From a virus, in the IMG/VR virus record IMGVR_UViG_3300032156_000011, positions 1 to 56,408 of that record: DNA of 56,408 bases. One strand, given 5' to 3'. The stretch's first letter is position 1. Every line of letters starts with the position of its first letter. A program made the translations under genes and the position numbers. The notes below the pieces were generated by a model, which saw only the letters and a program-made list of their open reading frames with translations, had not been told where the DNA came from and did not search any database. Below are positions 6,432-56,408 of this stretch, piece after piece.

Positions 6432-6787
6432 TCGTCTTGCGCTTTTACCCCTCCCCGCGCTCCTCAGTCGTCTTGGACATGGGGCGGGGGCGGGAAAAGG
6501 AGGTTATATTCCCAACGCTGCAACGGGACTGGGTGTGCGCGGTGCCAGATTGTCACAGCCCGCTGGCCGTTCTCAGAGACCCGGACGGCGTGACCCGCGC
6601 ACACTGTACGAAAGACGCCAACCACCCGGCAGACTTTGTACCGCTGGCTTGGGTGGAGGCGCAAGAGGCCGCGCAGGAAGAGGCGATTGAGGGCCTTCCC
6701 GAAGACTTGCGCAGGCTGGTGAGGGGAGAGGGCAGAAAGTGCGCCCCCAACTTCTCAATATTCAGTTTGGAAAAGGAGCAACTATGA
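6428..6787 (+). CDS. Putative zinc-binding protein
   Basis: A 119-aa protein with CAVPDCHSPL (about residues 37-42) and a later CTKDANH; together these could bind zinc, although only three clear Cys/His ligands are spaced as in a ribbon. Coupled by ATGA to the preceding gene. The C-terminus overlaps the ribosome site and first codon of the next gene. Confidence 0.5.
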   Translation: MIVLRFYPSPRSSVVLDMGRGREKEVIFPTLQRDWVCAVPDCHSPLAVLRDPDGVTRAHCTKDANHPADFVPLAWVEAQEAAQEEAIEGLPEDLRRLVRGEGRKCAPNFSIFSLEKEQL

Positions 6788-8085
6788 GTGACAGAGGAAC
6801 ATTGAAGGGGGTGCGCCCGCGAACCGGCCTACCCCCGTTGGGGACAATCCGGCTCGGTTTGCGCAAGCCGGGGGGAGGGGCGATGGCGACGGAGTACTTT
6901 GTGCTCCGTGACGCCCCGGACGTTGCTGACGCGCTCGGTACGAATACGCCGACAGAGATCGAGGTCGTGTTGCTCGGCAACGGGATTACCGAAAACGTGG
7001 TTTCGTTTTTCCAGGTGTTTGCCGGCGGTGTGGCCGGGAAGCGGGGGTTTCTCATTTGCCAGGGTGACGGCGGCGAGATGGAAACCCTGTACCCCCACAC
7101 CATTAAGGAAAAGGACGGCAAAACCGTCGTCGGCAATGGGGCAGGCGACCAGCGGGTCGCCAACGGTATCGCGCAGGTGGACTTCCGCCTTGTCTCAGGC
7201 GGGGAGACGATTCAGTTTCACCCTGGCGACCGGGTGACGTGCCCCGGAAAGAGCAACATGGGACGGTACTTGCACTGCGCTGCCTGTAGCATGCGAACCT
7301 ACCTGCACGTATACCCGGTGTGCGTCGCCAAGCCTGGCAAGCAGGAGATCGGCGTGTACAAAATCTCTACCGGGTCCTGGTACTCCTGGTCCCAAATCCT
7401 GGCGACTTTGGAGGTCGTCCATGCCAAAGCTGGCAGGGTTTCTGGTATTCGCTACATCATGCGCATTGTCCAGCGCGACCGCCCATACCCCGGAGAGGAC
7501 AAGAAGCGGCACATGACGACAAAGCCCGCTTTTGAGTTGATTCCCCTGGGCATGGACTTTGATCGCCTGCTACAACTGGAGCGTGATGCCGTCTTGCGCG
7601 CCCTGCCTGCCCCGGATGATGACGACACGTTTGACGCCGACCTGGTGGTAGAGGATGAAGAGATCCCGGGTGATGGTGATGCGGAGGGGGTAAAGACGAC
7701 CCCCACCCCCACCCCGCTGGCTTCTCAGCGCCCCTACCTTCCCACGACCATCCTCCAGCAGATGCGCCAGCAGTCCGGCGACTGGGTGCAGGGCGTGCTG
7801 GCGGACTGGTCGGACGCGCGCAAGGGGAACACGGAGCAACGCATACCGCCGCCGCCGGAAGAACTCCAGGCGGTATTCGACTTCCTGGGAGACGACATGG
7901 TGGTCGTCGCGGGCTACCTTTTCGACACCACCCCCGACGGCATGAGCGCCGGGGAGGTCGGTGCGTTGCTCATTTTGATCGAGCAAGAGGAATTGGCGCG
8001 GGCAGAAGTGGCGCAGATCGTTGCGCTGGCGGCGGCTGAGTTGTCCGCGCAGAGTGAGGCCGGCAGAGAGCCGGGGGAGGGGTAG
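6784..8085 (+). CDS. Recombination-directionality-factor-like DNA-binding protein
   Basis: A 433-aa protein. The N-terminal pattern LGTIRLG..K...G...PT.YFVL (residues 18-45), and the layout with a Cys cluster CAACSMRTYLHVYPVC (about 160-175), resemble the gp3/RDF-like family of actinobacterial and related phages, whose members bind DNA; some may act as single-strand-binding or accessory recombination proteins. An acidic, Thr/Pro-rich linker follows at about 280-325. The ATG at 6784 follows AAAAGGAGCAACT; the earlier GTG at 6739 overlaps the previous gene and is unlikely. No integrase is present, so an excision role is doubtful. Confidence 0.5.
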   Translation: MSDRGTLKGVRPRTGLPPLGTIRLGLRKPGGGAMATEYFVLRDAPDVADALGTNTPTEIEVVLLGNGITENVVSFFQVFAGGVAGKRGFLICQGDGGEMETLYPHTIKEKDGKTVVGNGAGDQRVANGIAQVDFRLVSGGETIQFHPGDRVTCPGKSNMGRYLHCAACSMRTYLHVYPVCVAKPGKQEIGVYKISTGSWYSWSQILATLEVVHAKAGRVSGIRYIMRIVQRDRPYPGEDKKRHMTTKPAFELIPLGMDFDRLLQLERDAVLRALPAPDDDDTFDADLVVEDEEIPGDGDAEGVKTTPTPTPLASQRPYLPTTILQQMRQQSGDWVQGVLADWSDARKGNTEQRIPPPPEELQAVFDFLGDDMVVVAGYLFDTTPDGMSAGEVGALLILIEQEELARAEVAQIVALAAAELSAQSEAGREPGEG

Positions 8086-10023: not shown

Positions 10024-10435
10024 AAGCACTCGACCTGGTAGAGGCACGCCGCGCAGAGTTGGCCGCACAAGAGGCCGCCGAAAAGGAGCGCAGGCAGCAG
10101 GTAGAGGCCGAGCGGGGGCGCCTCGTCCGGGATGTCTACCAGCCGCAGGTCGTCGCGCTGCTGGTTGGACTTGGCCTGGACGCTGAAGAGATCGCGGCGG
10201 GGGTGTCCCTCACACCCCAGACGTGGTTCAAGGGCACCACACCTTACAGCAATGTGTACCCCTTGCTGTCAATTCCGGGATTCAAACGGATCGGCGTGTC
10301 GCTGCTTTTCCGAATCGGCAGCGGCTTAGAGATGGCCGAGAAAAGTCACCCGTTTTTCATAGCTGAAGCGGACTGGACCGCGAAAAGTTTCGACACCATC
10401 GCCGACGCTCTGTGTTTCGCGCAGGAGGTGAAGCC

Positions 10436-10439
<4 letters not shown>
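10020..10439 (+). CDS. Hypothetical protein with N-terminal coiled coil
   Basis: A 139-aa protein: residues 1-40 form a charged heptad helix (AAQEAAEKERRQQVEAERGR), the rest is globular. ATGA overlap with the previous gene and GTGA overlap with the next. No family recognised. Confidence 0.55.
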
Positions 10440-10950
<511 letters not shown>

Positions 10951-10954
<4 letters not shown>

Positions 10955-12458: not shown

Positions 12459-12612
12459 GTCGGGGGAGAAATCCCCGGCTGGCCGTCGCGGGCCAAAAGA
12501 TACACGGCAAGGCGCTTTTTCCCTGCGCCGGTAGCCGTAACTGAGTGTGTCCAGTAACCGCGACCGGCAACCGACGTAGGGAAAAGGCGCTTTTGCGTCA
12601 AAGGAGCAAAAC
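12459..12612 (+). ncRNA. Structured leader RNA ahead of replication genes
   Basis: GCGCTTTTTCCCT (12512-12524) pairs with AGGGAAAAGGCGC (12578-12590) with one G-U, and adjacent A/G and T's extend it to about 16 pairs. Inside, GCCGG/CCGGC can nest. Upstream, GGGGGAGAAATCCCC forms a separate hairpin. TTTT follows the right arm, as in a terminator, and AAAGGAG follows a few bases later. The plan (promoter, long hairpin, ribosome site) matches that of 9493-9742. With the split gene it accounts for the whole 12287-12613 gap. Confidence 0.6.
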
Positions 12613-12613
12613 G

Positions 12614-12934
12614 ATGGACACATTGATTGACAAAGACGGATTCATTGCACTAAAACTTCCCCCTTCCCGGAATTGGGAGGAACCTTTTTGGAATGTGGAG
12701 GGGATTTTACCGGAAGGACTAGCCCTTCTTGCGGGTCGGCCAAAAGTTGGCAAGACCTGGCTGGCCTTGCAGATTGCAACGGCGGTTGCAGCGGGCGGGC
12801 TGGTTCTTGACCGGAAGGCAAATCAAGGGCGCGTGCTATACCTTTACTTGGAAGGCAGCGAAAGGCAAGCGCAAGGACGGCTTGCAGCGCAAAGGATGGG
12901 GGGCGGCCCTATACCTGAAGGAGATCAATGGTAA
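12614..12934 (+). CDS. Truncated RecA/AAA_25-like ATPase fragment
   Basis: A 106-aa protein with a Walker A motif, LLAGRPKVGKTWLALQIA (about residues 38-55), preceded by a typical lead-in strand. It resembles the N-terminus of AAA_25/RepA-like DNA-replication ATPases, but the family is normally over 300 aa and the Walker B and arginine-finger regions are missing. It ends at 12934, overlapping the next ATG. It may be a decayed ATPase that still binds nucleotide or nothing at all. Confidence 0.6.
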   Translation: MDTLIDKDGFIALKLPPSRNWEEPFWNVEGILPEGLALLAGRPKVGKTWLALQIATAVAAGGLVLDRKANQGRVLYLYLEGSERQAQGRLAAQRMGGGPIPEGDQW

Positions 12935-13926
12935 AGACAGTCACAGTTTTTGCGGCGCAATCAATAGCCGACGGGGAGCAGCGCGGGGCGACCATCATCA
13001 TAGGAGAGCCGTTCCCCGACGCCAGTACAGCCTGCTACGATGGCCCATTACAACACATGATAGATGCGCAGGCTATCGCGGACGCGCTGTGGGAAAACCT
13101 TCCTGGGGGGACACTCGACCGGCTGGTAGTGGCCCTTATGCAGCGAAAGTTGAGCCTTTACGTGAAGGCTTACCCGGACATGTTCCCTGAAACGGCAGCG
13201 CCACAGGTTGCGCCAGCCGAGCACAAACTGTTGGTTTGTGAGGCCGCGAGCCTTTGCTTGTGGATAAAGGACGGCGGTCGGCCTTGCGGACACGACACCC
13301 CCCATCACCGTACGGAACGTTGTTCGTGGATATGCTCTTATCATGACGGTGTGGGGGATTGCACCCCCTACACCCCGCCAGCCGCCCCCGCTGCGCCCCC
13401 GCCCCCCGCTTCCATTATTTCAGAAAGCAGCGTTGTCGGAGCCTTGTTTGACTTGGTACGGCTATCAAAAGTCGTCTTGTCCGGTCAGGACGTGAAGCCG
13501 GAATTTACGCAGGCTGTCACGCACGCTGACCACGTTCTCGACTTGGTTGGCGACGCACTCAGAGAGGGGGCGATACTTTACCCCGCAACAATTCCCGCTG
13601 CGCCCCCGTCGAGCGAGGTTGCGGCGGCGTTGCGCAATTTGGCGCATGCTGTCAATGCTTATGCCCCGCCTGGTACTGATGTAGCCATCATGGGAGCAAC
13701 GAGAGACGCAATCGCACTGCTAGGCCGCCTCGACGCAGGTGAGACGCCCGAGCCAGACTACCCCGCGCCCCGGTCGGTTGAGGATGCGGCGAGGATGGCG
13801 GAAGCGTTGCGGGATTGGTTCGAGGAAAAAGGGATGGGTAATACTGCCCGCAAAGCAAACGAGCTAGTTGCTCTGACAGAACTGACTCGGACGGAGACGA
13901 TGGCAAAGCAGGAGGCCGCCAAGTGA
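12928..13926 (+). CDS. Hypothetical protein, multi-segment
   Basis: A 332-aa protein after AAGGAGATCA. It has an N-terminal alpha/beta segment, a Cys/His cluster (CGHDTPHHRTERCSW, about 118-136) that may bind zinc, a Pro/Ala linker (about 148-165) and a helical C-terminal part. No family recognised. Directly upstream of the initiator gene, so a replication role is possible from context only. Confidence 0.55.
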   Translation: MVKTVTVFAAQSIADGEQRGATIIIGEPFPDASTACYDGPLQHMIDAQAIADALWENLPGGTLDRLVVALMQRKLSLYVKAYPDMFPETAAPQVAPAEHKLLVCEAASLCLWIKDGGRPCGHDTPHHRTERCSWICSYHDGVGDCTPYTPPAAPAAPPPPASIISESSVVGALFDLVRLSKVVLSGQDVKPEFTQAVTHADHVLDLVGDALREGAILYPATIPAAPPSSEVAAALRNLAHAVNAYAPPGTDVAIMGATRDAIALLGRLDAGETPEPDYPAPRSVEDAARMAEALRDWFEEKGMGNTARKANELVALTELTRTETMAKQEAAK

Positions 13927-14915
13927 CCGCCGAATTGCCGCCGTTCACCCCCTCATTCGATTGGGTGCGGGATGGGTTGGGGGACACGTCCGCCAGGGTC
14001 TACGGCGCAGTGTTCCGGTTCTGCCAAATGCGCGAGGGTGTTTGCCGGGCAGGACTTGACGAGATCGCCCGGCGCGCAGGCGTATGCAGAAGGACGGCCA
14101 AGACCCACCTGGACTTGCTGGTAGACCTGAAGTGCATTGCCGACCAGACCCCCAATCTACGAAACCACCCCCACCGATACACGGTAGCGGGGTGTAAGAG
14201 ATTCACAGTGCAAGAGTTGCACAGTGCAAGGGCTGCATTGCTACAGTGCAAGAGTTGCACCCCCACAGTGCAACAGTTGCCTACTGACAGTGCAACAGTT
14301 GCACTAGAGGATACATACAACCAAGAGACGAGAGAAGAGACCGCGCCCCCCTCCCCTGCCGCCATTGACGATTTTCCATCTGACGAGACGCTGGCCGCGC
14401 TTCTACGGGATACCGAGGAACTTGAAAAGCGCAGACGTGACGCTGAGACCGTCAAGCGGTTCAAGGCAGATTTTCCCCCAGGCACAGTTGGCGACGGTCG
14501 GGGGATGCGTAAGGGAGACCGAACGCCATATCAAGAAGACCTGGAAAACCCCCTCGTTGCCGCCGTTTTCGATGCGCTGGACGGCTTGGACGACGTTCCA
14601 GGGGGGCTTATCACGCATACCGATGATGAACGGCGGGTGTGTTCCGAGAAGATAGTCAGGCGGTTCAGAGCGGTTACGCCTGAGCAGATAACCTGGGGCG
14701 TCCGGTTGTGGGGCGTCACCAACTGGCGCGAGGGGGCAACGACGCTGTACAGTAAGGGCGTTCCTGCTGAGATCGCGAAATCAATAGCCGCAATCGTCGC
14801 GGCTACAGGCAGGGGTGAGGACCCGGAGCAGGTCGTGCAGGCCGCGCAGGAGAGGGCGCGGGGTAAGGCCGGCCCCGCTGAGATACCACTTGCCGACCAA
14901 ATGAGGATGGTATGA
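13923..14915 (+). CDS. Phage replication initiator (lambda O-like organisation)
   Basis: A 330-aa protein. Residues about 20-85 form a winged helix (ARVYGAVFRFCQ...LDEIARRAGVCRRTAKTHLDLL) of the kind found in phage replisome organisers; a flexible centre follows, and the C-terminal part (about 190-330) is helical. The central coding DNA holds five iterons (14205-14303), as the lambda O gene carries its own origin. The next gene, overlapping by ATGA, is a DnaB-type helicase. Together this makes an initiator that loads the helicase the best reading; sequence similarity to O itself is not claimed. Confidence 0.75.
   Translation: MTAELPPFTPSFDWVRDGLGDTSARVYGAVFRFCQMREGVCRAGLDEIARRAGVCRRTAKTHLDLLVDLKCIADQTPNLRNHPHRYTVAGCKRFTVQELHSARAALLQCKSCTPTVQQLPTDSATVALEDTYNQETREETAPPSPAAIDDFPSDETLAALLRDTEELEKRRRDAETVKRFKADFPPGTVGDGRGMRKGDRTPYQEDLENPLVAAVFDALDGLDDVPGGLITHTDDERRVCSEKIVRRFRAVTPEQITWGVRLWGVTNWREGATTLYSKGVPAEIAKSIAAIVAATGRGEDPEQVVQAAQERARGKAGPAEIPLADQMRMV
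14205..14303 (+). repeat. Five iterons, probable replication origin
   Basis: Copies of ACAGTGCAAgAGTTGCA start at 14205, 14221, 14243, 14265 and 14287. The last four are spaced exactly 22 bp, two helical turns. Each is itself a near palindrome, GTGCAA..TTGCAC. They lie inside the initiator gene and are followed by a locally A-rich stretch (about 14304-14340). Arrays of this type are bound by the initiator to open the origin; that step is inferred here from family knowledge. Confidence 0.8.
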
Positions 14916-16225
14916 GCCAGTCAATAGCGCCCCCATCTGATCCGACTTTCGAGGAGCTCGTCATAGCCTCCCTGCTCCTCGACCCGACTGCCATTGCCGC
15001 AACCGCCGACCTGTTGAGCGCGTCAGATTTCTACGTCCACCAGAACGGTGCGGCGTTCCGGGCAATCGTGTCCCTGGACGCCAGCGGGCGCGACGTGGAC
15101 CCGGCTACCGTCCAGGTTACAATGGCAGCGGATGGGGTAGAGGTCGGCATGGATTGGTTGGCGCTATTGCTCGATTCTGTGCCAACCGCCCTGAACGTCC
15201 CGACGTATGCGAGACGGGTTGCTGATTTGGCCTACCGACGCCGGGCTATCGAGGCGATGTCTCAGGCCGTCGCGTTCGCCTATAACGAGAAGGCCGACCA
15301 GGGCCAGGTAGAGGCGGCGGTAGAGGGGGCAATGCGTGCGGCGCGGAACGGTACGTACACGGCGCGGGCAGCCTCGGCGCTGGAATCCGCCAACCTGGTG
15401 ACGGGGGCGGCTGAGGATTGGGCAGCCCACCCGCTGAAGCCTGGGCAGGTGCGGGGGATTTCGACGGGACTGGCCGACCTGGACACCCTGTTGTATGGGT
15501 TGGGAGTTGGATTGCATTTAGTAGCGGCGCAACCATCTGTCGGCAAGACAGCGTTTTGCTTACAGGTAGCCGCGAATGTGGCGACGGCTGGCGGGCGGGT
15601 GGTCTACTTCTCTTCCGAGTCCGGGCATGAGGATATTGCCATGCGCTTGATTTCTGGAAAATGTGGGATATACCTGAAGGACATTCTTAACGGTCTAGAT
15701 CATGAGGACTATCTGCGCTTTCTGGCGGCGGCGACGTGGTTCTCCGAATTAAGGTGGGAGACTATTGAGGGGGCTTTGTCGGCGCGGCAGATCGGGCGAG
15801 AACTGCGCATCCGGGGTGACGTGACGCTGGCCGTCGTGGACAATTTGGAAGTCACCACATCCGCCAGCGGAGGTAACGATAAGGATTATGTTAAACTGCG
15901 CTCGACGGCCTATGCTCTCATGGATGTGGCAAACGAGAATAGGTTGCCGCTTATCCTCACGATGCAGGCGGGGGTTAAGCAGACGGACAGTCGGCCAGAT
16001 CGCAGGCCAACTTTGGCGGACCTGTATGGCTCAGATGGGCCGGCGCAGGCTGCGCACGTCGTCCTGCTTCTACACCGCCCCGACCGCTGGCAGTTTGATC
16101 CCAGTCAGTTAAAACACGAAATTGAGGCGCAGTGCTGGAAAGACAAAATACACCACACTGGTCTTGGGCGCATGTGCGTTTTCCAGTTCTGGAAGCAGGG
16201 CCAGGTACGAGACAGGGCGAAGTAG
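14912..16225 (+). CDS. dnaB: DnaB-type replicative helicase
   Basis: A 437-aa protein with the DnaB N-terminal helical domain (residues about 12-115) and the RecA-like core: Walker A AQPSVGKTAF (205-214), catalytic Glu in YFSSES (about 236), Walker B LAVVDNLEV (306-314) and a downstream sensor region (LADLYGSDGPAQAAHVVLLL). The family unwinds DNA 5' to 3' at the fork as a hexamer. Start overlaps the initiator's stop (ATGA). No primase or polymerase is seen, so host enzymes are probably recruited. Length is a little short for DnaB but normal for phage versions. Confidence 0.9.
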   Translation: MSQSIAPPSDPTFEELVIASLLLDPTAIAATADLLSASDFYVHQNGAAFRAIVSLDASGRDVDPATVQVTMAADGVEVGMDWLALLLDSVPTALNVPTYARRVADLAYRRRAIEAMSQAVAFAYNEKADQGQVEAAVEGAMRAARNGTYTARAASALESANLVTGAAEDWAAHPLKPGQVRGISTGLADLDTLLYGLGVGLHLVAAQPSVGKTAFCLQVAANVATAGGRVVYFSSESGHEDIAMRLISGKCGIYLKDILNGLDHEDYLRFLAAATWFSELRWETIEGALSARQIGRELRIRGDVTLAVVDNLEVTTSASGGNDKDYVKLRSTAYALMDVANENRLPLILTMQAGVKQTDSRPDRRPTLADLYGSDGPAQAAHVVLLLHRPDRWQFDPSQLKHEIEAQCWKDKIHHTGLGRMCVFQFWKQGQVRDRAK

Positions 16226-18666: not shown

Positions 18667-18816
18667 CCACCCCGCCCACCTGCCCAATCTGCTCCCGCCC
18701 GCGGGGGTGGGGGGGGGTTTTGGGGTGGTCCGGGGGGGGTGTTGGGCGGGGGGGGGGGGGGGGGGGGGGGGGGGTGGTGGTGGTGTGAATACTGCCCGCC
18801 GGGAGGCTTGAGGTGA
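18663..18816 (+). pseudogene. Zinc-ribbon gene interrupted by a 27-G run
   Basis: MTTPPTCPICSRPRG begins at 18663 (ATGA overlap) and runs into a G-rich region that includes 27 consecutive G's (18748-18774). In the present frame it stops at 18786. One base away, the frame reads W-W-W-CEYCPPGGLR and stops at 18814-18816, overlapping the next GTG. The two halves, CPIC and CEYC, would complete a zinc ribbon if the run had 26 or 29 G's. Either a slippage-prone on/off gene or a sequencing error in the homopolymer. Confidence 0.5.
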
Positions 18817-19625
18817 GAGTTTTACGGCCTGCATCGCGGTACTATGGCGGAAAGTGGGTGCTGGCCCCGTTCGTCATTGCGAACCTTCCGCCCCACTATC
18901 TGTACTGTGAGCCGTTGGGTGGGGCGGCGTCCGTGCTGTTGCGCAAGTCCCCGTCGGCGTGCGAGGTCTACAACGACCTGAACAGCGGGGTGGTAAACTT
19001 CTTTCGCGTGCTGCGCGAACGTCCTGACGACCTGGCCCGCGCTGTGCGCCTGACTCCGTACAGCCGCGAGGAGTTCCGCATTTCTCAGGAGCCGACAGAC
19101 GACCCGTTGGAGGCGGCCCGCCGGTTCGCCGTATGGTCTTGGCAGGGACGGGGTAAGGCCGGTGTGATGGACAAGAGCGGATGGCGGTTCATGTCCAGGC
19201 CGACCAGGGGGAGCGTTCCGCCCCGCGATTGGGACATTTCGGAGAATATATTGGCGGTTGCAGAGCGTTTCCGTTACGTCCAGATCGAGAATGATACCGC
19301 GATGCGGGTCATTCCACGATTCGATGGCGTGCAATCGCTCTTTTACGTGGACCCGCCGTACACGCTGGCGGAACGGTCGAAACGGACGCGGGGTTACGCC
19401 AACGACTTCACCGACGCCGACCACAAGGAGCTTGCCGACGTGTTGCACCAGGTAGCCGGGATGGTGGTCTTGAGCGGCTACCCGTCGGCGATGTACGAGA
19501 AGTTGTACAGCGGGTGGAAGATGGTGACGACGGCGGCCAGGGCGGACAGCGGGCGAGAGACTGTCGAGGCGCTTTGGTTGAATCAAGCGGCGGTAGACGG
19601 CCGGCGCGGGATGATGCTGCTGTGA
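18813..19625 (+). CDS. D12-class DNA adenine methyltransferase (Dam-like)
   Basis: A 270-aa alpha-class N6-adenine methyltransferase. Motifs in order: RYYGGK (9-14), the SAM-binding EPLGGAAS (33-40), D-L-N, a target-recognition region at about 75-155, and the catalytic DPPY (180-183) in FYVDPPYTLAE. The family transfers a methyl group from S-adenosylmethionine to adenine in a short site, often GATC. In phages it protects DNA from restriction or marks it for packaging or repair. GTG start. One of three methyltransferases here. Confidence 0.9.
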   Translation: MRVLRPASRYYGGKWVLAPFVIANLPPHYLYCEPLGGAASVLLRKSPSACEVYNDLNSGVVNFFRVLRERPDDLARAVRLTPYSREEFRISQEPTDDPLEAARRFAVWSWQGRGKAGVMDKSGWRFMSRPTRGSVPPRDWDISENILAVAERFRYVQIENDTAMRVIPRFDGVQSLFYVDPPYTLAERSKRTRGYANDFTDADHKELADVLHQVAGMVVLSGYPSAMYEKLYSGWKMVTTAARADSGRETVEALWLNQAAVDGRRGMMLL

Positions 19626-21039: not shown

Positions 21040-21297
21040 ATGCTTTCGCACCGTGTCGTGTGGGTTAAGATGCGCCGCAAGTCGCGCAAGTTGGCAATCC
21101 GCTACCACCGCGCCATAATCGAAATGTGCGCCCGGAGAGTTGACGCCGCCGCGCACCGCTACCGGGTGGAGGTGTTCTCGGAACCGGACCCGGCGCGGCT
21201 TGAGACGTGTGGACAGGTTGACAACTGCTCGGCGGAAGTGCTGCGAGAGCGGTTGCAGGAGTTGGCGAAGGAGATAAGGGAGTTGAAAAGTGGGTAA
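21040..21297 (+). CDS. Hypothetical basic protein with C-terminal helix
   Basis: An 85-aa protein, N-terminal half strongly basic (KMRRKSRKLAIRYHRA), C-terminal half a Glu/Leu helix. May bind nucleic acid. Overlaps the next gene by 8 nt. Confidence 0.5.
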   Translation: MLSHRVVWVKMRRKSRKLAIRYHRAIIEMCARRVDAAAHRYRVEVFSEPDPARLETCGQVDNCSAEVLRERLQELAKEIRELKSG

Positions 21298-22195
21298 AAT
21301 AAAAAAGTTGTACAAGACGTTCGGCCCACTGCCCCGCGCTTTTCGCGTGCTGTCCTGGGGGATTGGCGTCCAGTCAACCACCCTGGGCGTTATGTCGGCG
21401 CTCGGAATGCTTGAACGGCTGGACGCTATCATCACGGCGGACACGCTTTGGGAGAGACAGGCGACGTATGATGCGCGTGACTTTTACATGCAGTGGTTCG
21501 CCGACCACGATCTTCCGGTTTACATTGTCAGCGCGGGGAGCGTGTTGCAGATGGGGGCGCGTGAGCACGTCCACATTCCTTTCTGGACTGCGAACGGCGG
21601 GCCGCTAACGCGCCAGTGTACAAAACATCATAAAATCATGCCCGTTCGGAGATTGACGCGACAGTTGTTGAAAGAGCGCGACTTAGCTCTTGGTATTAAA
21701 AACCACTTTAGGAAAAGTGCTGTAGAATCATGGGTCGGATTCAGCATGGACGAGTTGCAGCGGGCAAAGGGGAGCGACGTGGCGTACATCTGCCAGCGTT
21801 GGCCTCTCCTTGAGCGCACAATGAGCCGCCAGGACTGCGAGCGGTTGTTAGCCGGCCTGGGCCTCCCCATCCCTGTCAAATCGGCGTGCATCGGTTGCCC
21901 GTACCGGTCTGCGCTTGACTGGGTAGAAATGGCCGAGCAAGCGCCAGACGAATTTGAGCAGGCGTGCAAATTTGACGAGGAGAACCGCCACAATCCGCTA
22001 AAGAGCGCTGGGAGCACGGCGAAAGCACTTTACATTTTCAAGGATGCGAAAGGACACCCCCTCCCGCTGCGCGAGTCTTTTCAAGACGGAACATTACAGC
22101 GGATGGCGGAAAGACAGCGCCGGGCAGCGCGTGACCAACTGGCGCTGTTTGATCTGGCGGATGCAATGTGCGGGGAAGGGGTGTGCATGGTATGA
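21290..22195 (+). CDS. PP-loop (PAPS-reductase-like) enzyme
   Basis: A 301-aa member of the adenine-nucleotide alpha-hydrolase fold. The PP-loop reads SWGIGVQSTT (22-31), a variant of SGGxDS; Cys110 and the CIGCPYRS pair (200-203) probably bind zinc or an iron-sulfur cluster. Phage members of this group are thought to activate substrates with ATP, for example in DNA or tRNA modification. Real PAPS reduction is unlikely. A second, unrelated-looking PP-loop gene (43274-44062) lies in the csf operon. GTG start. Confidence 0.75.
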   Translation: MGKIKKLYKTFGPLPRAFRVLSWGIGVQSTTLGVMSALGMLERLDAIITADTLWERQATYDARDFYMQWFADHDLPVYIVSAGSVLQMGAREHVHIPFWTANGGPLTRQCTKHHKIMPVRRLTRQLLKERDLALGIKNHFRKSAVESWVGFSMDELQRAKGSDVAYICQRWPLLERTMSRQDCERLLAGLGLPIPVKSACIGCPYRSALDWVEMAEQAPDEFEQACKFDEENRHNPLKSAGSTAKALYIFKDAKGHPLPLRESFQDGTLQRMAERQRRAARDQLALFDLADAMCGEGVCMV

Positions 22196-22467: not shown

Positions 22468-22797
22468 ATGCCTAGAAAACACCCGGAAAACCGCATAAAA
22501 TATATCATGCTCATAGAAGGCCACAGGGTGGAATACTCGTACAGCTTGTACACCGTCCTTTCCAGTGATGGTGTGTACGGACACCCGGACAGGCACGGTG
22601 ATCGTGTCGTGTGGCGCTCTGACCGCGATTTCACACCTGCTGGTGGGGTCTATGGCCTGGTGGACGATTTTAACGCCAAGTTGCGGGAAGAGAAGCTCCG
22701 GCGCAAACTCGAAAAGCGGGCAGAAGATAGGAAAAGGAAAGAGGAGGAGCGCATACAGCAAAACGGCGGGTACAGGCAGGGGGTGCTATTTGAGTAG
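22468..22797 (+). CDS. Hypothetical protein with charged C-terminal helix
   Basis: A 109-aa protein; ATG at 22468 follows TTTTGGAGGTTGAC. N-terminal half beta-rich, C-terminal half a Lys/Glu/Arg helix (LREEKLRRKLEKRAEDRKRK). Ends IQQNGGYRQGVLFE, overlapping or abutting the methyltransferase start. Confidence 0.5.
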   Translation: MPRKHPENRIKYIMLIEGHRVEYSYSLYTVLSSDGVYGHPDRHGDRVVWRSDRDFTPAGGVYGLVDDFNAKLREEKLRRKLEKRAEDRKRKEEERIQQNGGYRQGVLFE

Positions 22798-22798
22798 G

Positions 22799-23902
22799 GT
22801 GCGGGTGTACGCAGGCGACGCGCTGGCAGTGATGCGCAGGCTACCCGCCGGGTCATTCGACCTGGTTGCAACCGACCCGCCGTACTGTGGCGTCAAGGAA
22901 GAGAAGTGGGACAACCAGTGGGCCAGCCCCGCCGACTACCTGGCATGGATCGGCGACCTGTGCGCAGAGTGGGCGCGGCTGCTGCGCCCCACCGGGTCGC
23001 TTTACCTTTTCGCGTCTCCTCAGATGGCGGGGCGGGTGGAGTGCAAGGTCGCTGAGACGTTCAACGTCTTGAATAACATCGTTTGGGTGAAAGGGGACGC
23101 CAACGGCGGTGGTTTGTGGGCAAGAGCAGAAAAGGACGCGCTGCGCTCGTTTTTTCCGCGCTCCGAGCGCATCATATTCGCTGAGCACTATGGCGCTGAC
23201 AGTTACGCCGCCGGTGAGTCGGGATACCAGGCCAATTGCGACCAGGCGCGGGGATTCGTATTTGACCCCATCCGCGTGTACCTGCGCTCGGAGTGGGAGC
23301 GGGCGGGGATGAAAGCAGAGGACGCCAACACCGCGTGCGGAACGGCAAGCATGGCTGGACGCCACTATTTCACGCAATCGCAGTGGTGCATGCCGACCAG
23401 GGAGCACTACCAGGCAATGCAGAGGTACGCCAACCGCAACGGCGGTGAGTTCTTGCGCCGGGACTATGAGTACTTGCGCCGGGACTACGAGGACTTGCGC
23501 CGGGACTACGAGGACTTGCGGGAAGAATACGAAAGCCTGCGCCGCCCGTTCACCGTCACCGCCGACGACCAGTACACCGACTGCTGGACGGCGTTCCCGA
23601 CGGTTGCGGCCTACCCCGGAAAACACCCCTGCGAGAAACCCGCCACGCTCATGGAACACATCATCCTCACCAGCACGCTACCCGGTGCCCGGGTCCTGGA
23701 CCCGTTTTGCGGAAGCGGGGCGACCGGGGCGGCCTGCAAGAGGTTGGGGCGCGACGGGGTGTTGGTGGACAACGACCGCCACTGGGTAGAGGTTGCGCGT
23801 GACAGGGTAGCACACGCTGAGGATCGCCAGCTTGAGTTGCCGGGGTTGCAACAGGAACGGCGCTGCAGCAGGAGTTCGGCGGGACAGATGCGCTTGCTGT
23901 AA
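22799..23902 (+). CDS. DNA methyltransferase with coiled-coil repeats
   Basis: A 367-aa beta-class (N4-cytosine or N6-adenine) methyltransferase: catalytic DPPYCGVKEEKW (26-37) comes before the SAM-binding DPFCGSGATG (about 300-309), the order typical of the class. Between them, residues about 218-248 are four near-identical heptad-like units (LRRDYEDLRRDYEDL), encoded by tandem 21-bp repeats at about 23453-23545; similar repeats are known in other phage methyltransferases and may set the distance between or dimerise domains. Start uncertain: GTG 22799 chosen, TTG 22790 possible. Confidence 0.85.
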   Translation: MRVYAGDALAVMRRLPAGSFDLVATDPPYCGVKEEKWDNQWASPADYLAWIGDLCAEWARLLRPTGSLYLFASPQMAGRVECKVAETFNVLNNIVWVKGDANGGGLWARAEKDALRSFFPRSERIIFAEHYGADSYAAGESGYQANCDQARGFVFDPIRVYLRSEWERAGMKAEDANTACGTASMAGRHYFTQSQWCMPTREHYQAMQRYANRNGGEFLRRDYEYLRRDYEDLRRDYEDLREEYESLRRPFTVTADDQYTDCWTAFPTVAAYPGKHPCEKPATLMEHIILTSTLPGARVLDPFCGSGATGAACKRLGRDGVLVDNDRHWVEVARDRVAHAEDRQLELPGLQQERRCSRSSAGQMRLL

Positions 23903-54846: not shown

Positions 54847-56133
54847 TCAATCCTCAGCGCCTACCCGCTCAATCTCCAAGTCCGGGAAGGCCGTCGCCAT
54901 GCGCTCTAGCGTGACGGCGCAGTATTTCGGCAAGAGTTCTATGCCCAGTCCGCGCCGATTGTTCTTGTGCGCTGCAACGATGGTTGTGCCGCTTCCCAGG
55001 AATGGGTCGGCTATGGCGTCCCCATCATCTGAATAGTCGAGGATGATGCGGGAAAGCAACTCGACCGGTTTTTGAGTTGGCGCGTACCGCTCCCCCTCTT
55101 TACCAATCAAGCCATTGTAAACGACGGTGTACTTTTTAACCGAATGTCGCCCCGCCACGTTTGTCCAGGCCAACTCGCAATCCCCGAACGTTGGCATGGT
55201 GTTCTCTTTGTCCCACACAATCCAGTGTCCGCCAACAGGAATCAAGTCGGTGAAAAAGTTGCCCCCGAATATGATGGCTGTTTCTGCGCTTGCCAATAAG
55301 ATATCAAATGTCTGTTTCTCAGGGCGCTTACCGTCCCACGAATCCTTGTACTGGCGTCGGGGTATTTGTTTCCCACTTCCGCCAAAACCATCCGCCCCGC
55401 CGAATCCCTTGTCGCGCCCCACCCCATAGGGGGGATCGGCTACACATAAGGACGCCTTCCCCACGCCGGCCACACCGAGCAACCGCGCCCAGGTCTCTTG
55501 CTCCCTGCAATCTCCACAAATAATGACGTGCTCCCCGATGCGCCACAGGTCGCCGACCTCCACGCGCCACTTCTCTTGCAACTCCTCAGCGCGGTCAACA
55601 GGCGCATCGTCACCCGCGCCCGTCTCGCTCCCATCATCATCCTGCTCCTCAGCGGTCAGCATTGCGCCCAAGTTCGCCGCGTCGTTATTCCACGCGGTCA
55701 ACTGCTCGGCGTCCAGCCCCCACTCCTGCAACTGCGCAGCGTCCCACCCGGCCAGGGCGTCCCAGTCCCAAAACCCGGCGTCGGTGTTGGCAACGATGTT
55801 TGCCCGCTGGCAGGTGTCCGCGTCCCATCGCACCTGGCGGTAGGGGATGCTCCCGCCAGGCCAGGTAATGAAGCCGACCCGGACGGTCCCTTGAGCATCG
55901 GGGGCGTGCTCCTCGTCAATGAACTCCACGCGCACCCCGCGCTTGCCGATAGCCCGCATGTGTTGGTTGCCGCTGATAATCTGGTCAGAGTTCAGATCGT
56001 GAACAACTCCGCCCAGTTCGCCCAAGTCGGCCAGGGAGGAGCGCAGAGCGTCGAGTCGCTTCTTGGAAATACGGCGCGGGTTTTCGGCGAACGGAACGCC
56101 GACAGCGAACGGGGAAGGTGGTACTGTACTCAT
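54847..56133 (-). CDS. ParB-domain DNA methyltransferase
   Basis: A 428-aa fusion. Residues 1-115 are a ParB-N-like domain (KKRLDALRSSLADLGELGGV; the catalytic-type GNQHMR, 55-60). After an acidic linker (about 160-185) comes a beta-class methyltransferase: DPPYG (233-237), a target region, and SAM-binding DPFLGSGTT (376-384). ParB-methyltransferase fusions are common at the start of phage packaging modules. I chose ATG 56133, the first codon after the promoter; it leaves no room for a ribosome site. A longer frame to 56307 would span the promoter. Confidence 0.85.
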   Translation of the reverse strand: MSTVPPSPFAVGVPFAENPRRISKKRLDALRSSLADLGELGGVVHDLNSDQIISGNQHMRAIGKRGVRVEFIDEEHAPDAQGTVRVGFITWPGGSIPYRQVRWDADTCQRANIVANTDAGFWDWDALAGWDAAQLQEWGLDAEQLTAWNNDAANLGAMLTAEEQDDDGSETGAGDDAPVDRAEELQEKWRVEVGDLWRIGEHVIICGDCREQETWARLLGVAGVGKASLCVADPPYGVGRDKGFGGADGFGGSGKQIPRRQYKDSWDGKRPEKQTFDILLASAETAIIFGGNFFTDLIPVGGHWIVWDKENTMPTFGDCELAWTNVAGRHSVKKYTVVYNGLIGKEGERYAPTQKPVELLSRIILDYSDDGDAIADPFLGSGTTIVAAHKNNRRGLGIELLPKYCAVTLERMATAFPDLEIERVGAED

Positions 56134-56140
56134 GATTCGT

Positions 56141-56169
56141 ATTATATCAGAAAACACGGTGAGAGTCAA
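56141..56169 (-). promoter_or_regulatory. Leftward sigma-70 promoter of the late operon
   Basis: Minus strand: TTGACT (56169-56164), 17-bp spacer, TATAAT (56146-56141). The ATG of the methyltransferase gene begins seven bases after the -10 box, so the mRNA should be leaderless or nearly so. It is back to back with the rightward repeat promoter at 56282-56408. The gap 56134-56281 holds this promoter and a GC-rich stretch with repeated ggcgacctg. Confidence 0.85.
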
Positions 56170-56281
56170 GAAGCAATTTCCGGCGCGTGCTGGCGACCGG
56201 GGGTACCTGGCAGGCTGTCCCAGGTCGGCGACCTGGCGCAGATCGGCGACCTGCTGGCGGACGCGAAACGCAGCGCAATCG

Positions 56282-56408
56282 GGTCGAAAGTGACAAAGTT
56301 CCCCCAAACATCCGTGCTAAGCTTGTGTTACAGTCCGTAACGCAATTGTAATTTTTCCGTAACGGCACGATATAGAATAGATGCTATAATTGAATCATAG
56401 AGAGAAAG
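56282..56408 (+). repeat. Right-end copy of the 140-bp regulatory repeat
   Basis: Identical to 4424-4550, and continues identically into 61-73 of the window's left end. Includes GTTAC-AGTCC-GTAAC (56327-56341), the second GTAAC at 56359-56363, and TATAAT at 56385-56390. On a circle this is the promoter for genes 124-1679. The last 60 bases duplicate 1-60. Confidence 0.85.

What the first reader, a model, noticed from the sequence alone, without database searches (positions are those of the whole stretch)
14205..14303. Iteron origin inside the initiator gene
Five 17-bp palindromic iterons, four at exact 22-bp spacing, in the middle of a winged-helix initiator gene followed by DnaB. The lambda O/P arrangement is known, but the repeats and protein here look unrelated, so this would be an independent case of the same logic.
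Basis: partly seen in the sequence, partly recalled or inferred. Interest (0 to 1): 0.75.

Follow-up and report, generated by a model that had tools for sequence, protein, structure and literature searches.

The report
Phage origin inside its initiator gene
A phage carries five short palindromic DNA repeats inside the gene for the protein that very likely binds them to start copying the genome; the arrangement is real, but it belongs to a widespread class that also includes lambda-like phages and some staphylococcal plasmids, not to a separate invention.

Summary
The array is real. Five copies of a 17-bp repeat (core GTGCAASAGTTGCAC) lie at 14206-14304, spaced 16, 22, 22 and 22 bp, only inside the gene at 13923-14915. 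They fall in all three reading frames and exceed dinucleotide and synonymous-codon nulls, so selection acts on the DNA.

Best reading: a replication origin. The product's winged helix binds the iterons, a disordered iteron-coded linker tethers a helical C-terminal domain, and the phage DnaB encoded next is loaded. A relative (L015) gives a natural swap test: its C-terminal domain is 84% identical, but helix domain and iterons were replaced together by another HTH domain and another 21/22-bp array.

'Independent of lambda' is not supported. The same iterons (mode 22-23 bp) lie directly behind an HTH_36-like domain in 44 non-redundant initiators; 18 of 54 initiators picked by protein alone carry in-gene arrays, mostly of other sequences. 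Lambda O shares PHROG families with this set, and plasmid pPR9 is a published HTH_36-plus-origin cassette swap.

Verdict: a new member of a known kind. The survey, an AT-rich 3' flank and a recognition-helix signature add modest novelty. Binding and initiation were not tested.

The parts
13923..14915 (+). Initiator gene, 330 aa, GTG start. N-terminal winged helix, disordered linker, helical C-terminal domain. Overlaps the upstream gene and DnaB by 4 bp each.
   Evidence: HMM built without this protein hits it at i-E 2.5e-7
13959..14192 (+). Codons 13-90: winged-helix DNA-binding domain (pLDDT about 90-96 over most of it), HTH_36-like; recognition helix around CRRTAKTH
14206..14222 (+). Iteron 1 CAGTGCAAGAGTTGCAC
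14222..14238 (+). Iteron 2 CAGTGCAAGGGCTGCAT (degenerate)
14244..14260 (+). Iteron 3 CAGTGCAAGAGTTGCAC
14266..14282 (+). Iteron 4 CAGTGCAACAGTTGCCT
14288..14304 (+). Iteron 5 CAGTGCAACAGTTGCAC (most symmetric)
14305..14329 (+). Candidate unwinding stretch directly 3' of the array: 60% AT versus 40% for the gene. The next 25 bp are only 28% AT.
   Evidence: class-wide AT enrichment on this side only
14202..14378 (+). Iteron-coded linker, codons about 94-152, mostly low pLDDT (predicted disordered)
14433..14873 (+). C-terminal domain, codons 171-317, 84% identical to the L015 initiator; proposed helicase-recruiting domain (inference)
13946..14434 (+). Segment not shared with L015 between two conserved blocks (13910-13945, 97%; 14435-14858, 87%): the exchanged HTH-plus-iteron cassette
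14912..16225 (+). DnaB-type replicative helicase, 437 aa (DnaB and DnaB_C domains)
   Evidence: E 2e-30, 1.8e-18; phrog_19 6.4e-52

Best explanation
The repeats are the phage's replication origin, embedded in its own initiator gene. Dimers of the N-terminal winged helix bind each GTGCAAnnnTTGCAC dyad; sites about two helical turns apart place successive dimers on one face of the DNA. The complex probably opens the AT-richer stretch just 3' of the array. The flexible iteron-coded linker lets the C-terminal helical domain recruit the phage DnaB made from the next, overlapping gene. DNA-binding domain and iterons form one cassette that recombination exchanges as a unit. Shown here: the array, its DNA-level nature, the (predicted) domain layout, the cassette exchange and the class-wide association. 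Inferred: binding, melting, helicase contact and that replication starts here.
For: Array confined to this gene and in three reading frames. Close relative L015 keeps the C-terminal domain (84%) but has another HTH N-terminus together with another in-gene array, AACCCATGCACA at 22/21 bp. Pattern-only scan of viral contigs: in 38 of 112 loci the iteron pair lies inside an ORF that matches the HTH model, versus 5 such matches among 4739 other ORFs in the same loci. Protein-only survey: 18 of 54 HTH-model loci have arrays of 3 or more copies, all 3' of the HTH, versus 0 of 310 codon shuffles. In 44 initiators with this iteron core, the array starts a median 6.7 aa after the HTH, spacing mode is 22-23 bp, 29 of 44 use 2-3 frames, and AT rises 15 then 9 points in the 50 bp 3' of the array, against 3 and 1 points 5' of it. 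DnaB lies downstream. The winged helix matches pSK41-type Rep structures at Z 8-9, tied with other winged helices. Lambda has 4 in-gene iterons at 20/24/23 bp.
Against: No binding or replication data. GC skew shows no turn at 14.2 kb. The window's own AT-rich stretch is short (60% over 25 bp, then 28%). GTGCAAnnnTTGCAC pairs also occur as 30-33-bp-spaced, promoter-overlapping sites that are not in initiators, so the motif alone does not prove an origin. Pfam HTH_36 scores 16 bits, below its cut-off of 25. Only one close relative was found.
Confidence: 0.86

Rival explanations
1. The array is an operator: the HTH protein or another regulator binds it to control the early operon, and replication starts elsewhere.
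For: The same dyad occurs as intergenic, promoter-overlapping pairs spaced 30-33 bp, mostly in Lachnospiraceae, so some regulators probably bind it.
Against: Here it lies deep in a coding region, at 22-bp phasing, in the HTH-DnaB module; in the class it sits directly behind the HTH and is followed by AT-rich DNA; the HTH and array are exchanged together in L015.
Confidence: 0.06
2. It is an origin, but an independent invention of the lambda O/P logic by an unrelated protein and repeat. This rival concerns descent, not function, so it is compatible with the best explanation.
For: No Pfam Phage_rep_O match, different iteron sequence, and DnaB rather than a P-type loader downstream. An HMM of the class did not report lambda O.
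Against: Lambda O and HTH_36-like initiators hit the same PHROG families: 678 on the lambda N-terminus at 1.7e-35, 345, and 391 on its C-terminus. Layout, dyad iterons, spacing and 3' AT-rich side agree.
Confidence: 0.12
3. The sites bind the initiator but serve copy control, incompatibility or partition rather than initiation.
For: Plasmid iterons often do both (general knowledge).
Against: The in-gene sites of the RepA_N and HTH_36 plasmid initiators described in PMC5703833 are origins; no partition gene was recognised in the replication module.
Confidence: 0.05
4. Coding coincidence or peptide repeat.
For: The protein sequence alone yields about one motif-like match per recoding.
Against: Five copies in three frames; maximum 4 in 1000 recodings.
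Confidence: 0.01

Closest known systems
Lambda O / ori-lambda
   Same: Dyad iterons inside the initiator gene directly after the DNA-binding domain, spacing 20-24 bp, AT-rich region on the right, each iteron bound by two O proteins (PMC6022878). Specificity hybrids with phi80 and 82 are cited there (Furth and Yates 1978).
   Different: Iteron sequence differs; the N-terminus is PF04492 in lambda, not detected here; lambda has loader P, here a phage DnaB.
Staphylococcal plasmid pPR9 Rep (HTH_36 N-terminus on a pSK41 RepA_N C-terminus)
   Same: An about 500-bp HTH_36 domain plus in-gene origin was exchanged onto a conserved C-terminal domain; functional mini-replicon (PMC5703833). The L015/window exchange is the same kind of event at about 490 bp.
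   Different: Plasmid, different C-terminal domain; its repeats could not be compared because the record is not held.
RepA_N initiators (pSK41 Rep)
   Same: Winged-helix N-terminus, Rep boxes centrally in rep, dispensable linker (PMC5703833); VIA-align Z 8-9 to 4pql, 4pt7, 5kbj and 4pta.
   Different: No PF06970 match; C-terminus not compared here.
SPP1 gp38 / oriL
   Same: Origin direct repeats and a DUE with oriL inside gene 38; phage DnaB-type helicase gp40 (PMC6316719).
   Different: Separate loader gp39 and a second origin oriR; sequence not held here.
TP901-1 Rep
   Same: HTH_36-like N-terminus at 24.5 bits, just under the cut-off.
   Different: DnaB_2-type C-terminus; its origin was not examined here.

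Membership tests
HTH_36-like phage initiators with in-gene iterons | N-terminal HTH of this family | tested here: met
   HMM built without the window protein hits residues 34-104 at i-E 2.5e-7, Z=1000; PHROG 270 E 4e-4
HTH_36-like phage initiators with in-gene iterons | Pfam PF13730 over its curated cut-off | tested here: inconclusive
   16 bits versus 25; L015 at 23 and TP901-1 at 24.5 also fall short, so the cut-off is strict for this class
HTH_36-like phage initiators with in-gene iterons | Phased iteron array directly 3' of the HTH codons | tested here: met
HTH_36-like phage initiators with in-gene iterons | Protein binds its iterons and starts replication | not testable with these tools
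   needs biochemistry
Lambda O (PF04492) | Phage_rep_O domain | tested here: not met
   no PF04492 hit for the window protein while lambda O scores 5.7e-36
Lambda O (PF04492) | In-gene dyad iterons with AT-rich right flank | tested here: met
   the window's AT-rich stretch is short
Lambda O (PF04492) | Helicase loader P encoded downstream | tested here: not met
   DnaB follows instead; the relative L015 has a DnaC-like AAA protein
RepA_N (PF06970) | RepA_N domain | tested here: not met
   no sequence match
RepA_N (PF06970) | RepA_N-like winged-helix fold | tested here: inconclusive
   Z 8-9, tied with many winged helices
DnaB replicative helicase (next gene) | DnaB N and DnaB_C domains over cut-off | tested here: met

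The most novel reading that the evidence does not exclude
HTH_36-like initiators form a phylum-spanning family of self-contained 'DNA-binding domain plus in-gene iterons' cassettes of about 0.5-0.7 kb that recombine onto different helicase-recruiting C-termini, and origin specificity can be read from the recognition helix (Ser36 and Arg38 with non-Arg42 for GTGCAAnnnTTGCAC). The window and L015 would be one natural swap.
Probability: 0.45. Interest if true: 0.6.

Novelty: new member of a known kind. Interest (0 to 1): 0.4.

Why it matters
It gives a ready set of about 120 HTH_36-like domains, dozens of them with recognisable in-gene arrays, in which initiator-origin specificity can be predicted and tested, and a natural cassette swap between two close phages. 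That would allow origins to be located in uncultured phages from sequence alone. The single locus by itself is ordinary phage biology.

Tried and rejected
GC skew as origin evidence: follows gene orientation. Phage reference collection: no tblastn match to the initiator. Distant search for the C-terminal domain with the two-row alignment: only L015 again. Of the ten strict-pattern hits only some are initiators (L009 clearly); several lie between genes or in apparently unrelated sequence and L005 is a protein repeat. Foldseek against PDB gave no significant hit, only generic winged helices. Tree-based independent-pairs test of the recognition-helix residues: only 4 supported pairs, no power; the matched-identity comparison is therefore suggestive only, and the two groups were collected differently (mostly iteron-picked versus mostly protein-picked). 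Codon-shuffle survey: loci L205-L222 came from genomes already chosen by iteron, and L241 duplicates L212, so they were left out of the 18/54 count. SPP1 and pPR9 records were not held.

Full report
Observation. The repeats are present as described: five copies of CAGTGCAASAGTTGCAC at 14206, 14222, 14244, 14266 and 14288. Spacing is 16, 22, 22, 22. Three copies match the consensus exactly, copy 4 has two mismatches and copy 2 three. The core GTGCAANNNTTGCAC is a dyad; copy 5 is symmetric at 14/14 positions and copy 2 only at 8/14. No other copy occurs in the 56.4-kb virus record. Dinucleotide shuffles give 0.19 matches versus 7, none of 100 reaching 7. Recoding the gene synonymously 1000 times gives a mean of 1.1 and a maximum of 4 matches versus 5 observed. 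The copies fall in phases 1, 2, 0, 1, 2, so the repeat is kept at DNA level, not as a peptide.

The gene. The ORF at 13923-14915 overlaps its upstream neighbour and DnaB (14912-16225) by 4 bp each. DnaB is clear. The initiator has only weak library matches: PF13730 HTH_36 at 16 bits, below the cut-off, and PHROG 270 'replication initiation protein'. An HMM made from other phages' initiators, without this protein, hits residues 34-104 at 2.5e-7. The predicted structure has a confident winged helix (13-90), a low-confidence linker (about 107-152) that contains much of the iteron-coded part, and a helical C-terminal part. Structural second look: Rep structures of staphylococcal RepA_N plasmids are among the best at Z 8-9, but tied with many winged helices.

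Natural swap. The only close relative found, in contig IMGVR_UViG_3300033485_000032 (L015), shares residues 171-317 at 84% identity. DNA homology breaks off at 13945 and resumes at 14435; the replaced part holds the winged helix, iterons and linker. In L015 that part encodes another HTH_36-like domain and carries another in-gene array, AACCCATGCACA at 22 and 21 bp. The helicase gene also differs: L015 has a DnaC-like AAA protein next and no DnaB in its 45-kb record. HTH domain and repeats changing together is the strongest evidence here that they are lock and key. Conserved blocks on both sides of such a cassette fit ordinary phage mosaicism.

Generality. In 38 of the 112 newly fetched loci the pair lies in an ORF matching the HTH model, against 5 HTH matches among 4739 other ORFs there. 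The model was trained on some of these same loci, so a Pfam scan is the independent check: of 35 proteins (32 array-bearing ORFs chosen from that scan plus the three query proteins) HTH_36 was matched at E <= 0.1 by 27. In bacterial and archaeal genomes a stricter pattern gave 76 loci; 11 were in HTH-model ORFs, several with 22-23-bp arrays, while most others were 29-34-bp-spaced pairs, often intergenic and overlapping promoter-like sequence, so the dyad is probably also used by regulators. Over 44 non-redundant initiators with this core, the array begins a median 6.7 residues after the HTH, spacing peaks at 22-23 bp, 29 arrays use two or three frames, and AT content is 15 and 9 points above the gene's mean in the first and second 25 bp after the array, against 3 and 1 points before it. 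In the window the first 25 bp are 60% AT, the next 28%, so a DUE is plausible but short.

Protein-only survey. Initiators taken from genomes by PHROG similarity, without the motif, were tested for any in-gene array. After leaving out loci from genomes chosen by iteron and one duplicate, 18 of 54 have at least three copies of a 15-mer (13/15) within 150 bp, always 3' of the HTH, versus none of 310 codon shuffles over the whole set of 62. Most of these arrays have other sequences. In-gene arrays behind the HTH are therefore common in this family, and iteron sequence varies.

Recognition helix. Comparing initiators with and without the GTGCAAnnnTTGCAC array, profile position 42 differs beyond all columns (corrected), and position 38 is Arg in 86% versus 42%. 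At matched background identity, Ser36 and Arg38 are shared far more among iteron-sharing pairs than mixed pairs, while most other columns show little difference. The window keeps Arg38 but has Cys at 36. A tree-based paired test had only 4 usable pairs and the groups were gathered differently, so this is a lead.

Comparison with the known. Lambda O carries four annotated iterons inside O at 20/24/23-bp spacing, with an AT-rich region on the right and two O proteins per iteron (PMC6022878). Lambda O and the HTH_36-like initiators match the same PHROG families (678, 345, 391), so common descent is more likely than independent invention, though the window protein has no PF04492 match and the class HMM did not report lambda O. 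SPP1 oriL lies in gene 38 (PMC6316719). In pSK41-type plasmids the Rep boxes lie centrally in rep, and pPR9 replaced about 500 bp of N-terminal domain and origin by an HTH_36 module (PMC5703833). The idea and even the cassette exchange are thus published; this is a new member.

Limits. Binding, melting, DnaB contact and initiation are inferred. GC skew changes with gene orientation near 24.5 kb and says nothing about 14.2 kb. Read data were not available.

Noticed in passing
L162, L163, L143, L148, L182, L189 (genome loci): Pairs of GTGCAAnnnTTGCAC spaced 30-33 bp that overlap TTGACA/TATACT-like promoters, often with a further GTGCAA half-site at the start codon (GGAGGTGCAAATATG): looks like the operator of an unidentified regulator in Lachnospiraceae and relatives.
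   Followed up: partly
L021, L030, L034, L043, L044, L046, L047, L049, L057, L079 (viral contigs): A compact two- or three-copy element of the same dyad at exactly 21-bp spacing, at or near the start of ORFs that do not look like initiators; function unknown.
   Followed up: no
L181, L195, L197, L204: Tandem arrays of GGTGCAATGCTTGCACC-like units at 26-, 32- or about 40-bp periods in one Nostocaceae MAG (MO_167.B47).
   Followed up: no
window 12545-12934: A 129-aa ORF matching AAA_25/DnaB_C over part of the domain, upstream of the replication module; looks like the remnant of a second helicase-type ATPase.
   Followed up: partly
L015:6437-7285: In the relative the DnaB gene is replaced by a DnaC-like AAA protein behind a nearly identical initiator C-terminal domain, so that domain may work with either helicase arrangement.
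   Followed up: partly
window 10412-10954: Alanine-rich simple-repeat stretch (GCN codons) within a 180-aa ORF.
   Followed up: no
window 6739-8085, 18813-19625, 22565-23902, 54847-56307: Recombination directionality factor-like protein (Gp3-like) and three DNA methyltransferases, the last with a ParB-like N-terminal part.
   Followed up: no
window 21290-22195: Phosphoadenosine phosphosulfate reductase-like protein (phrog_424) in the early gene region.
   Followed up: no
L187:3264-4292: A Thermomicrobiales (Chloroflexota) 342-aa ORF with dyads of the same core at about 21-22-bp spacing and only a marginal HTH match: a possible distant member of the class.
   Followed up: partly
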